Made by a program: the position numbers and the translations under genes
The notes under the pieces: generated by a model
Seen by the model: the letters and a program-made list of their open reading frames with translations, nothing else
Database searches by the model: none
What the model was told of the DNA's origin: nothing
Shown here: positions 17,844-26,529 of the stretch, in pieces
How the letters are laid out: each line of letters starts with the position of its first letter
Numbering within the stretch: position 1 is the stretch's first letter
Source of the DNA: Symbiodinium natans
Lineage: Eukaryota; Sar; Dinophyceae; Suessiales; Symbiodiniaceae
Length of the DNA stretch: 64,000 nt
Reading direction: 5' to 3'
Assembly: GCA_905221605.1 (NCBI GenBank)
Contig: CAJNDS010000282.1
Span: 48,501 to 112,500, forward strand

Positions 17844-18050
17844 TGCGGAGCTGCAGTTGGTATTGTAGAAAAGAGTTGGTGTTGAAAGTTGAAGGGTCAA
17901 TGTACCTGGTAATCTTCATGGCTCAAGACTGGGCCATGCGCCTGGTAGCAAAAAGAAGTTTCGAGTTCTTGGTGTTTGCTGGTTGGTTCAGGGTGAAACC
18001 TCTGGCGACTGTTAGGGTTGATTCCCTTCCCCTTTCGGTTGCCCCCCGTA
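17844..18050 (+). repeat. 5' LTR (207 bp)
   Basis: Starts TGCGGAGCTGCAG and ends TTGCCCCCCGTA. It is identical by eye to 26323-26529. The 3' end is TA rather than the usual CA. As the 5' LTR it should contain the promoter; no TATA box is evident. Confidence 0.92.
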
Positions 18051-18066
18051 GGTTATGAGCGCAAAT
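18051..18066 (+). promoter_or_regulatory. Candidate primer-binding site (tRNA-Met anticodon-arm type)
   Basis: The sequence directly after the LTR is GGTTATGAGCGCAAAT. It lacks the TGG expected for priming by a tRNA 3' end. It resembles the Drosophila copia site, which pairs with the anticodon arm of initiator tRNA-Met (CAT anticodon with flanking AA). The match is partial, so this is an inference. Confidence 0.3.
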
Positions 18067-18115
18067 TAGGTTCCCTGCGGTTTGTGTTTCGGTTTTAGGG
18101 TGGTAGTTTGAAGCA

Positions 18116-18799
18116 ATGGCTACCAACTGGTTACAGACTGGTGCGGCATCATCGAGCTCCAACGTGGGCGATCAAGGTGAAGGTGGTGTCAAACGGTCTG
18201 CAACGGGTGAAAAAGTGGTTCCCAATGTGGAAGCTCTGGTTGATGCTGGTGGTATGCGTGGCGAAGAGAAGCCGGTGGTGGAAGGACTGGAAGACCAGAT
18301 GCAAGCAGTTTTGCTGCGCCTTCTGAGCAAACATGGGCTTTGTCTTCGAGCTGCGGGACCTGCTGAATCAACGGGAGCGCCAACAACAAGCTCCTCTACG
18401 TCAAAGATGGTGGAGCAAGAGTGCCAGACAGAGCTGGTTGGGGATGTTATCCCTGTTTCCAAGCGAGCTCGCAATAAAGTGAGCTTCGCGGCTGAAAGTG
18501 GTGATCTGTTGACAGGTGAAGCGGAAGAAACTGCGCCTGTTGCTGCGACAAAAAGCAGTATCCTCTTCACTGGGGACGCAGAAGGAGTTGTTCCTGTTGC
18601 TATGGTGATGAGTGAAGGAGAAATCCTGGAGTTGGAAGCAGCGAGAATACAGCAGGAGTCAGAGGAAGACTTATACGCTGCTGGTGGAGGCAAATTGTCT
18701 CGAGCTGCTGACCTTCCAATCATCGACTGTGATGGGAAGACGTGGGAACGCCATTTTCATGAGGATGGAAGAGAATTTCAGAATATCTTTACTGCTTAG
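18116..18799 (+). CDS. N-terminal ORF of the LTR element, ending in a WW-like motif
   Basis: A 227-codon frame starting at an ATG 65 bp after the LTR. The first 190 residues are Ser/Thr/Glu/Ala-rich and probably disordered, with no fold that I recognise. Near the C-terminus it reads TWERHFHEDGREF (first Trp codon at 18743), the first half of a WW-domain pattern; the second half (LDTGDTQWVLP) follows in frame +1 at about 18796-18826. The frame is therefore probably broken around 18778-18790, and this ORF and the next were likely one protein. WW domains bind proline-rich peptides. The reconstructed spacing between the two Trp is a few residues longer than usual, so the domain call is tentative. 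Its first-ORF position corresponds to where gag would lie. Confidence 0.55.
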   Translation: MATNWLQTGAASSSSNVGDQGEGGVKRSATGEKVVPNVEALVDAGGMRGEEKPVVEGLEDQMQAVLLRLLSKHGLCLRAAGPAESTGAPTTSSSTSKMVEQECQTELVGDVIPVSKRARNKVSFAAESGDLLTGEAEETAPVAATKSSILFTGDAEGVVPVAMVMSEGEILELEAARIQQESEEDLYAAGGGKLSRAADLPIIDCDGKTWERHFHEDGREFQNIFTA

Positions 18800-18828
18800 A
18801 CACTGGAGATACCCAATGGGTGTTGCCT
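18743..18828 (+). other. WW-like motif split by a frameshift
   Basis: Two Trp codons (18743 and 18817) in frames 2 and 1 flank GREF and LDTGDTQW, and VLP follows the second Trp, as in WW domains. The frame change lies between about 18778 and 18796. Confidence 0.4.
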
Positions 18829-24600: not shown

Positions 24601-25949
24601 TGGGTGAAGGGAGCAGTTCTCAGGTACATGGCAATGTTCATGTAGAGCAGAATCGCCCTATGGACCGGTACGAGGCGGAGCGTTTGGAGAAGAGGAAGAA
24701 AGGCTTCTGCTATTGGTTCAGCAGGGGAAAAGATCGCTGCAAATTTGGTGAACATTGCAAATTCATCCATTCAGAAGATGATGTGGTGCTACAATCGTAT
24801 TGGTGCAAGTACTATGTGGCTGGGAGACACTGCTTCTCTGGAAAGGACTGTAAGTTCTCACACAATGCAACTGGTGTAAGGTGTATCCAGTTTGCTCAGT
24901 CTGGGAAGTGCCGTTATGGGGACAAGTGTGTCTTTGAGCATGGTGATCCGCTGGATGAACAGAGGCCAAGGTCTCCAAGGACGCCCCCAAGGGATGGTCC
25001 CAGGAGAAGTTCTGGTACAAGAGGTGGAGGAAAGGAGATTTCTCCTGAACGGTTTGATGAAGAAGAGGAGGATTTCATGGTTTATGACGATGATACCAAA
25101 ATGGTAGAACTGCTGATGGAGGCGATTTCATTTATGTCCAATGGCAAGTCAGATTTGGCTCGTGCAGAGGCGGACCCAGTGTTCAAACTCCTGAAGTTCA
25201 ATGGAGACGCTGAACAGATGGATACAGAATGGTGTTCATGGACCACTGGTATGCTGTCCTTGCTGGAACTTCACGAAATAGTGAAGTCATATGAGGTTTC
25301 GCTGGCGGACGTGGAAGAATGGGTCAATGACCTGAGGATATGGTTCGAGCGAGCCAACGTTGAAGAAGAGAGAGATCCCAAAAGGGGCAAAAAGAGGTCC
25401 CTAGAAAGGGAGTCCAGCAAGGATATTCCTGCCGAAAAGGAGGTGGTTGGAACTTCGGAGACGGATGTTGCCGTTGAGGAAGAGGTGAAAAAGGTCAAAA
25501 AGAAGAGGAAAACTGCAGCTAGCGAGGATCCTTATACTCTTATGGTTCCAAAGCCGAAGAAGATGCCGGCGAACATTGAGAAGGGTGGATCATCATCCAA
25601 TGCGGTGGTTTCTGCAGGCGAAAAAGCCTCTTCGAGAACGCGCACAAAGTCAAGCGTCGTGGGAAAGACGAAGAAGAAAGAGAAAAGTCAAAGCCCCAAG
25701 AAGGAAGAGGTGGTAGTGGTGAAAGGTCCTGAGGAAAAGGATCGTTCCTCTGATGTGGATGCGCAAGTGTCTACTACTGTGGATGCAGAGCTGGGTCAAT
25801 CTTGCCAAGCAATTGAGGACGCGAAGAGAGAAGGATTGGTATCCTCAATTCAAAGGTGCGTGCAGGATCCTGTTCTTACAGTGTCGGACCTGGAGTATGT
25901 TCTGCTGCGACTTCACCTAAGTATCGATGCCCATCGGAAGAAGAAGTGA
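21669..25949 (+). CDS. Giant ORF (1426 codons) with three CCCH zinc fingers and basic C-terminus
   Basis: The frame is open upstream to about 21540. The start given is a TTG and the protein may be a continuation of the previous ORF. Residues about 35-105 (HWMARNNHLWVYTP ... VEDLVDKGVNKVTACKIL) look helical, possibly SAM-like. A Gly/Val repeat (VLPGQGVAGQ, VLPGQEVAGQ) lies near 390-420. A hydrophobic, predicted-globular stretch near 620-720 is unrecognised. Three CCCH fingers occupy residues 1014-1091 (CYWFSRGKDRC, CKYYVAGRHC, CIQFAQSGKC). The last 250 residues have several Lys/Arg clusters (KKVKKKRK, GKTKKKEK) that could act as nuclear localisation signals. No protease, integrase or polymerase motif is visible. 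An uninterrupted 4.3-kb frame in a young element argues for recent coding selection. Confidence 0.72.
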   Translation: MQMTNVSKKTGEGDTLDGADGDVQKDSVAESTTVRLQNPEEPIEHWMARNNHLWVYTPHVSDVMIKLGVTNVRELQEYIFVEDLVDKGVNKVTACKILQLVGGVQYRPMSPDVAVSTNASVRMEQSSGSREAGRDGVRTISQVREAEGPGTKEMPRGSYPEIFDTGKYRDAWTLAQRSPLCVQRLRLVGVGMPPVNPPTKAYRSRSNPVKRGRPLLDKKQVRQVPRSRSQRRVQPAEVVEKPKPLEPVKPRGGLSYPFSRAWADLVDDDDQTGALVSYADSSGDSSEEETNSARHLREIFLRERDSQRTATRGNVPLAGSSSSNDGQKKSVHLGEGRDKASRGETRQEVTSQVFSLPQPSRRTEQSQKRARDGSVIVGSLAVGSTDEVLPGQGVAGQVNVSESAQVLPGQEVAGQETALEGAVQISGEETDQKEGEGGSNELRGDGVKILDVCPVKKGHQQLLTKGLLKRIYWKVAVGKLPVGQRDCQKGSNKMDRNLVISMSPEGASEQELNLALVDDDDQSMDDGTMVVMVYDPRTLIQSPTTDWVTRRDLTDRTIWPAIATAAQRICAEMVQVDELNAQLETGTLLFQRRDQGHYGDLHHSFHDNPCLPAVGNYPLSVMGALLSPGLEGEFRNTEKFGTAMEAIAYDWSRSPGMEVHVELMARVAKLVAPFLTLGGQGSVVNSEFLWQRGKAQMMEFLQAATCADQLEVLWNRMDDDADEEVDPSGMMLEILGQKDAVLDQGINESPIPIEDAGGETIGDTGRDGKAPEVSPEEETSSGSSRLAGTRMFLWSVYSRVASNWDFSTQDRTTGRIFDSTKGYPGEGPDNGDDFSSKRNLPWISEDYLDEVMSKKMERSSDMDGLDGFVPGSEGQSEKVEVENVTASRILMALWKKGYRAGYRRLCRSNVSGCKVGAMKHPIKRVQKIGTRKAFVKIFNAFGSSQHGSGVGGKPIMKVVGPRPGFPAVLKASNTDSTLGEGSSSQVHGNVHVEQNRPMDRYEAERLEKRKKGFCYWFSRGKDRCKFGEHCKFIHSEDDVVLQSYWCKYYVAGRHCFSGKDCKFSHNATGVRCIQFAQSGKCRYGDKCVFEHGDPLDEQRPRSPRTPPRDGPRRSSGTRGGGKEISPERFDEEEEDFMVYDDDTKMVELLMEAISFMSNGKSDLARAEADPVFKLLKFNGDAEQMDTEWCSWTTGMLSLLELHEIVKSYEVSLADVEEWVNDLRIWFERANVEEERDPKRGKKRSLERESSKDIPAEKEVVGTSETDVAVEEEVKKVKKKRKTAASEDPYTLMVPKPKKMPANIEKGGSSSNAVVSAGEKASSRTRTKSSVVGKTKKKEKSQSPKKEEVVVVKGPEEKDRSSDVDAQVSTTVDAELGQSCQAIEDAKREGLVSSIQRCVQDPVLTVSDLEYVLLRLHLSIDAHRKKK

Positions 25950-26310
25950 CTGGATGGTATTGATGAGGGAATGGTTTTTCTCTTTCTGAAGACAGGTGCG
26001 CTGGAACAGCCAATGTGCTGAAAATATGGTGGTTACTATTAAGGGTATGGAAATCCCTGATAGTAGAAGTCAGTAGCTTTTTGCGTAGCGAAGACCACGG
26101 TTCGTGGTGAAGAAGACTGAAGAGTCTTCAATGACAAGGGAATCATGGTGAAAAAAGATTCTCTGTGGTAAAGGGTGTTTAGCCAATATGCTATAAATTC
26201 GTCCTGGATGACGTAAAACCATAATGTGCATTCCAAGCAGCTGGCTGCTGCCCTAATGGCGGTTTTTGGCCAAAAGTCTGCACCTCCAATGTGTGTCCTA
26301 GGAAATCCTA
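25950..26310 (+). other. 3' untranslated region of the LTR element
   Basis: About 360 bp between the long ORF's stop and the polypurine tract. No motif is recognised. A minus-strand frame of 119 codons spans it and the LTR but lacks coding features. Confidence 0.6.
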
Positions 26311-26322
26311 GGACAGGGGGAG
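26311..26322 (+). promoter_or_regulatory. Polypurine tract
   Basis: GGACAGGGGGAG directly abuts the 3' LTR. It is the expected plus-strand priming site and fixes the element's orientation as +. Confidence 0.8.
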
Positions 26323-26529
26323 TGCGGAGCTGCAGTTGGTATTGTAGAAAAGAGTTGGTGTTGAAAGTTGAAGGGTCAATGTACCTGGTAATCTTCATGG
26401 CTCAAGACTGGGCCATGCGCCTGGTAGCAAAAAGAAGTTTCGAGTTCTTGGTGTTTGCTGGTTGGTTCAGGGTGAAACCTCTGGCGACTGTTAGGGTTGA
26501 TTCCCTTCCCCTTTCGGTTGCCCCCCGTA
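26323..26529 (+). repeat. 3' LTR (207 bp)
   Basis: Identical by eye to 17844-18050; followed by the duplicated cccta and the right half of the target array. Confidence 0.92.

What the first reader, a model, noticed from the sequence alone, without database searches (positions are those of the whole stretch)
17844..26529. Young LTR element with no polymerase but a set of mRNA-binding-type domains
Seen: two 207-bp LTRs that are identical, a polypurine tract abutting the right one, a 5-bp target duplication, and 8 kb of interior with WW-like, S1-like, MLLE and six CCCH zinc-finger motifs. No protease, integrase, reverse transcriptase or RNase H motif is visible. Known: large non-autonomous LTR derivatives usually carry non-coding or Gag-only interiors. 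Inference: this may be a new class of cargo-bearing element whose proteins bind mRNA or poly(A) machinery to gain packaging or expression while borrowing enzymes in trans.
Basis: partly seen in the sequence, partly recalled or inferred. Interest (0 to 1): 0.88.

Follow-up and report, generated by a model that had tools for sequence, protein, structure and literature searches.

The report
Jumping gene carrying mRNA-binding protein only
A recently inserted LTR retrotransposon in what looks like an algal (dinoflagellate-type) genome has no detectable copying enzymes of its own and instead carries one giant gene, broken in this copy but unbroken in relatives, for a protein that looks built to bind mRNA and mimic part of the poly(A)-binding machinery.

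Summary
Window 17844-26529 is an LTR element: two identical 207-bp LTRs, a purine tract, a primer-binding-like site flush with the left LTR, and an in-phase 5-bp duplication of a telomere-type repeat. No polymerase, integrase, RNase H, protease or Gag model was found in any of its 28 ORFs of 100 aa or more.

Relatives P0027 and P0028 read the same stretch as a single uninterrupted protein of 2606-2609 aa. The window copy has five frame breaks and one in-frame stop. The gene fills about 95% of the interior.

Three searches give 33 clusters (605 member sequences), all of this family; none lists an RT or integrase domain. The protein carries a PRP40-like WW, an S1-like domain, a PABP-type MLLE and six CCCH fingers.

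Best reading: a protein-coding but enzyme-less LTR retrotransposon family, mobilised in trans, whose giant RNA-binding protein probably packages or protects its RNA. That role is inferred. LTRs could be checked at this locus only, because the own-genome search did not complete.

The parts
17844..18050 (+). 5' LTR, 207 bp
   Evidence: identical to 26323-26529
17907..17927 (+). spliced-leader-like stretch in the LTR: 14 of 21 to DinoSL, last 9 nt exact (a lead only)
   Evidence: 46 of 3000 shuffles reach 14/21, 3 of 3000 reach the 9-nt suffix; the 9-mer occurs in the window only in the two LTRs; DinoSL sequence also given in PMC12014239
18051..18060 (+). primer-binding-like site GGTTATGAGC, complement of an initiator tRNA-Met anticodon loop (tRNA sequence recalled)
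   Evidence: only occurrence in 64 kb on either strand, flush with the LTR end
18116..25949 (+). one giant ORF (2606-2609 codons in relatives P0027 and P0028), here with five frame breaks and one in-frame stop
   Evidence: colinear tblastn of P0028 and P0027; stop within piece 19999-21630
18720..18830 (+). WW domain, PRP40/FBP11-like (approximate), split by the first frame break
20090..20290 (+). S1-like (OB-fold) domain (approximate)
20479..20667 (+). MLLE domain with the KITGMLL core
   Evidence: Pfam residues 201-263 of the ORF starting at 19879; fold match in relative P0020
21019..21516 (+). CCCH zinc fingers 1-3 (approximate)
23020..23850 (+). central region of unknown fold (approximate; only a low-confidence all-helical prediction)
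24690..24947 (+). CCCH zinc fingers 4-6 (approximate)
25950..26322 (+). 3' untranslated region, folds better than 100 of 100 shuffles (z -3.1), ending in the polypurine tract AGGGGGAG
26323..26529 (+). 3' LTR, 207 bp

Best explanation
This is a young copy of a non-autonomous LTR retrotransposon family that encodes one giant RNA-binding protein and no enzymes. Shown: LTRs, primer-site-like sequence and purine tract at this locus; a single-ORF interior in relatives; no detectable pol. Inferred: (1) transcription from the LTR; (2) the protein binds the element's own RNA through its S1-like and CCCH domains and acts as a Gag-like RNP scaffold, while its MLLE domain binds PAM2 peptides and so draws in poly(A)/translation factors as PABP does; (3) reverse transcriptase and integrase come in trans from an autonomous element, probably copia-like; (4) a half-tRNA-Met primes synthesis; (5) the cDNA integrated into a telomere-type repeat. 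My odds: an enzyme-less LTR family mobilised in trans, 0.85; protein acting as RNP scaffold on element RNA, 0.45; MLLE used to recruit PAM2 factors, 0.4.
For: LTRs, ends and flanks; primer-like site unique in the window and flush with the LTR; copia using a half-tRNA and Ty5 priming inside the anticodon loop are precedents (passages of PMC5371799). One ORF in P0027 (2606 aa) and P0028 (2609 aa, cluster of 32 members), colinear with the window. No RT, integrase or Gag domain among the Pfam domains listed for the 33 clusters, including a search that by the tool's length rule was open to proteins up to about 4260 aa. KITGMLL core exact in 15 of 18 distinct sequences. In the 9 relatives compared with P0028 (of 32 others held), identity was higher inside the marked domains than outside in 9 of 9, by 2 to 19 points. 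Mosaic identity between subfamilies, for example P0027 against P0028 57-68% over residues 721-900 and 80-100% in the other windows, fits template switching in a retroelement. A copia-type element with RVT_2 lies 9.5 kb away.
Against: No DNA around any relative could be read, so LTRs are proven at this locus only. No transcript, no protein data, no Ka/Ks. The copia-type element in the window has different LTRs, primer site and ends, so the enzyme donor is unknown. Six of the 9 relatives show only 2-5 points more identity inside domains than outside, and the domain marks were set after seeing the conservation table. No capsid fold was shown: the model of the central region has mean pLDDT 32.7. 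The window copy is itself broken.
Confidence: 0.6

Rival explanations
1. A captured host gene: a cellular mRNA-binding protein gene was swallowed by an LTR element and amplified as passenger cargo without helping the element.
For: Every recognised domain is of a host type: PRP40-like WW, S1-like, PABP-like MLLE, CCCH. Capture of host-type genes into dinoflagellate retrotransposons is published for DNA methyltransferases (PMC5890265, passages).
Against: No cellular homologue of the whole protein among the hits of three searches of 5.8 billion proteins; all 33 clusters are this family, down to 48% identity to the window, which suggests long residence in the element. The searches reach only relatives sharing short exact words, and only the 7990 best candidates were scored.
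Confidence: 0.25
2. A deletion derivative: the protein is the very divergent Gag/ORF1 of an autonomous dinoflagellate element from which pol was lost, i.e. a TR-GAG element with an exotic Gag.
For: Gag-only LTR elements are a recognised class (PMC6022998, passages). Zinc fingers and a possibly helical central region are Gag-like in layout (the helical prediction is of very low confidence).
Against: No Gag model in Pfam at E<=1; no similarity to the Gag-side ORF of the window's copia-type element; no relative with pol attached. A divergent Gag could escape all of these.
Confidence: 0.3
3. Frame breaks are sequencing errors and the element is intact and active.
For: LTRs are identical, so the insertion is recent.
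Against: Five separate frame breaks plus an in-frame stop. By eye at the junctions (against P0011) several involve more than one base, unlike typical single-base homopolymer errors; this was not scripted.
Confidence: 0.12

Closest known systems
TR-GAG elements (terminal-repeat retrotransposons with a GAG domain, plants)
   Same: LTRs and a protein-coding interior with no polymerase; thought to be moved in trans
   Different: No Gag or protease domain recognised here; the protein is about 2609 aa with WW-like, S1-like, MLLE and CCCH domains
LARD (large retrotransposon derivatives)
   Same: Long LTR element (8.7 kb) with no retroelement enzyme domain
   Different: LARD interiors are classed as lacking domains; this one is about 95% coding in its relatives' frame
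SymbioLINE-Dnmt and SymbioDIRS-Dnmt3 (dinoflagellate retrotransposons carrying DNA methyltransferases, PMC5890265)
   Same: Retrotransposons of what is probably the same kind of host that carry host-type protein domains
   Different: Those keep reverse transcriptase and are LINE or DIRS; this is an LTR element without RT and with RNA-binding domains
Ty1/copia superfamily
   Same: Primer site matching a tRNA-Met anticodon loop, as for copia and Ty5
   Different: No pol, so superfamily cannot be assigned; LTR ends read TG...TA
[quoted passage not shown]
   Same: An MLLE domain with the KITGMLL core
   Different: No RRM model hit in the Pfam scans; MLLE sits beside S1-like and CCCH domains in a retroelement protein

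Membership tests
LTR retrotransposon (general) | Long direct terminal repeats | tested here: met
   207 bp, identical
LTR retrotransposon (general) | Primer binding site next to the 5' LTR | tested here: met
   GGTTATGAGC at 18051, only copy in the window; the tRNA sequence itself is recalled, not fetched
LTR retrotransposon (general) | Polypurine tract next to the 3' LTR | tested here: met
   AGGGGGAG ends at 26322
LTR retrotransposon (general) | Target-site duplication | tested here: inconclusive
   CCCTA on both sides, but in a period-7 repeat array: about 1 in 7 by chance
LTR retrotransposon (general) | Several LTR-bounded copies in the genome | not tested
   The own-genome search did not complete (last try); many protein relatives exist but their flanks were not readable
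LARD | LTR element of at least 2000 bp with no retroelement domain | tested here: met
   8686 bp; no RT, INT, RH, GAG or AP model in 28 of 28 ORFs of 100 aa or more; rule from PMC6022998
LARD | Non-coding interior (recalled as part of the original description) | tested here: not met
   Single ORF of 2606-2609 aa in P0027 and P0028
TR-GAG | GAG domain, or GAG and AP, and nothing else | tested here: inconclusive
   No Gag model at E<=1 in Pfam, but the central region is unassigned
Ty1/copia superfamily | Pol with integrase before reverse transcriptase | tested here: not met
   No pol found
MLLE domain proteins | MLLE domain above the Pfam cut-off | tested here: met
Cargo-carrying retrotransposon of the DNMT type | Cargo beside an element-encoded reverse transcriptase | tested here: not met
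   No RT in the element or among the domains listed for its 33 relative clusters

The most novel reading that the evidence does not exclude
A retroelement that lives by imitating the host's mRNP: it carries no enzymes and spends its whole coding capacity on a PABP-like MLLE/S1/CCCH scaffold that makes its RNA look like a favoured, well-protected mRNA and draws in PAM2 translation and decay factors, so that it is translated, packaged and reverse-transcribed by another element's enzymes. A spliced-leader relic in its LTRs would further tie its RNA to host trans-splicing.
Probability: 0.2. Interest if true: 0.82.

Novelty: new variant of a known kind. Interest (0 to 1): 0.58.

Why it matters
Enzyme-less LTR elements are usually classed as domain-free or Gag-only. 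One whose relatives keep a very long, uninterrupted gene for an mRNA-binding protein suggests that the protein itself earns transposition. If the MLLE domain is used, it would be a clear test case of a retroelement exploiting the poly(A)/PAM2 network, in hosts described as largely lacking transcriptional regulation (abstract of PMC11071213 as shown in the listing).

Tried and rejected
Hidden polymerase: Pfam on 8 window proteins (6 of the element, 2 of the neighbouring copia-type element as a working control, which gave RVT_2 above its cut-off and the integrase core at E 1.3e-7 but 0.4 bits under its cut-off), on 20 further ORFs and on the last 2, so 28 of 28 element ORFs of 100 aa or more; and tblastn with the neighbour's two proteins. 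Nothing beyond chance level apart from MLLE and CCCH. Shorter ORFs were not scanned with Pfam. My regular-expression scan for catalytic motifs was weak: on the control Pol it found only an integrase-type and an RNase H motif and missed the RT motif, so I place no weight on it; it also gave two integrase-type H-C matches in minus-strand frames of the element.

Neighbouring copia-type element as enzyme donor: its LTRs, ends and primer site differ, so no direct link was found.

Relatives with readable DNA: none in viral contigs, prokaryote genome contigs or phage records. Host species: not identified. For Polarella glacialis the passages found mention TTG repeats and LTR elements, and the word telomer does not occur in its main text; TTTAGGG is given as the telomere repeat of F. 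kawagutii and other dinoflagellates (PMC11453091, passages), which, with the spliced-leader-like stretch, is why I say dinoflagellate-type.

Papers: ten answered searches showed no title or abstract start that describes this element; I saw listings only, and only open-licence papers are held. Read as passages: PMC5890265, PMC7245778, PMC5371799, PMC11453091, PMC12014239, PMC6022998. Two papers were not held.
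Full report
What is there. The stretch 17844-26529 is bounded by two 207-bp direct repeats that are identical and stop exactly at those coordinates. The left repeat is followed at once by GGTTATGAGC, a sequence found nowhere else in the 64-kb window on either strand; it is the complement of the anticodon loop of initiator tRNA-Met (tRNA sequence recalled). Copia priming from a half-tRNA and Ty5 priming from an end made inside the anticodon loop are described in PMC5371799 (passages). 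The right repeat is preceded by AGGGGGAG. Flanks are CCCTAAA arrays, in phase with a 5-bp duplication; because the array has period 7 this would agree by chance about once in seven. Exact telomere-type arrays of 14 bp or more make up 14.8% of the window outside the two LTR elements, so landing in one is not by itself evidence of targeting.

The interior. The main ones are pieces of one. Protein relatives P0027 (2606 aa) and P0028 (2609 aa) align colinearly from 18116 to 25946 in six pieces, i.e. with five changes of frame, and the piece 19999-21630 holds one in-frame stop. In the relatives' frame the gene spans 7834 of 8272 interior bases, leaving 65 bases before and 373 after it. So there is hardly any space for pol, and none was detected: Pfam on 28 of 28 ORFs of 100 aa or more in both strands (list; scans), tblastn with the neighbouring copia-type element's proteins, Pfam on 14 aligned family members and NCBIfam on two. 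The same Pfam search did find RVT_2 in the neighbouring element, and the integrase core at E 1.3e-7 just under its cut-off, so the method works on this genome.

The family. Three protein searches returned 26, 13 and 21 proteins, together 33 distinct clusters standing for 605 member sequences (members can be fragments, and some clusters are probably two pieces of one copy, such as P0012 and P0020, both with a longest contig of 25,021 bases, so this is not a copy number). None lists a polymerase or integrase domain. No cellular relative appeared, though the search reaches only proteins sharing short exact words and only the best 7990 candidates were scored. Identity to the window's 1474-aa ORF ranges from 96% to 48%. 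Identity along the protein is patchy between subfamilies: P0014 and P0026 have a different N-terminus (30-43% to P0028 over residues 61-240) and P0014 then rises to 80-98% over much of the rest; P0027 and P0028 agree at 57-68% over residues 721-900 and at 80-100% in the other windows. Such mosaics are expected from template switching.

Selection. Without DNA of other copies I could not compute Ka/Ks. I compared P0028 with 9 of the 32 other proteins: in 9 of 9 identity was higher inside my domain marks than outside, but by very different margins: 19 points for P0012, 14 for P0026, 9 for P0014, and only 2-5 for the other six. The marks were set by me after seeing the conservation table, so this is weak support. 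Stronger is that uninterrupted proteins of 2435, 2606 and 2609 aa represent three clusters (321 members in all, not all of them necessarily full length).

Age and state. With 0 differences in 207 bp the insertion is recent, yet the gene is broken. Either the breaks came after insertion or a broken copy was mobilised. If the latter, the protein too can act in trans; the data do not decide.

A lead. The LTR holds a stretch matching the dinoflagellate spliced leader at 14 of 21 positions, its last nine bases exactly (17907-17927). Of 3000 dinucleotide shuffles 46 reach 14 of 21 and 3 reach the nine-base suffix. I noticed it before testing it, so these figures flatter it. Retrogenes with spliced-leader relics are described in PMC12014239 (passages). 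The neighbouring copia-type LTR reaches 11 of 21 with a 5-base suffix, and the reverse strand of this LTR 10 of 21.

How it probably works. The LTR drives an RNA; its protein, when made by an intact copy, binds that RNA with S1-like and CCCH domains, and may use MLLE to attract PAM2 proteins as PABP does; enzymes come from another element. Only the anatomy is shown; each functional step is inference. The neighbouring copia-type element (36029-46823) is not the obvious donor, as its LTRs, ends and primer site differ.

Novelty. Known neighbours are TR-GAG and LARD elements (definitions from PMC6022998, passages) and the methyltransferase-carrying retrotransposons of Symbiodinium (PMC5890265, passages), which keep RT. 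Ten literature searches of open-licence papers listed nothing that describes this element (on retroelements, on telomere repeats; listings only). I file it as a new variant of a known kind: a non-autonomous LTR retrotransposon, distinguished by its giant mRNA-type protein.

Noticed in passing
36029-46823, minus strand: A second LTR element: 330-bp repeats with 2 mismatches, two long ORFs (1091 and 2342 aa), the longer with RVT_2 and a near-cut-off integrase core. Its LTRs start GAGTC and end CAAC(T), and the site after the LTR reads TGGTAGCGGAGC; its shorter ORF gave no Gag model at E<=1.
   Followed up: partly
1-35900 and 46850-64000: Dense short arrays of the telomere-type repeat CCCTAAA/TTTAGGG in both orientations, 14.8% of the sequence outside the two LTR elements by an exact-array count.
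   Followed up: partly
56246-58138: Tandemly repeated sequence, copies mostly 80-92% identical in the self-comparison, overlapping repetitive ORFs of up to 468 aa.
   Followed up: no
25950-26322: The 3' untranslated region folds more stably than 100 of 100 shuffles (z -3.1); a possible packaging or protein-binding structure.
   Followed up: no
28834-29511, minus strand: A 225-aa ORF with a Cys/His-rich stretch that from memory resembles the tail of dinoflagellate LINE-type proteins; not tested.
   Followed up: no
17900-18055, in and after the 5' LTR: Four ATGs precede the main start at 18116; three lie in the LTR and in its frame, but a stop separates them from the main ORF, which opens at 18107.
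   Followed up: no
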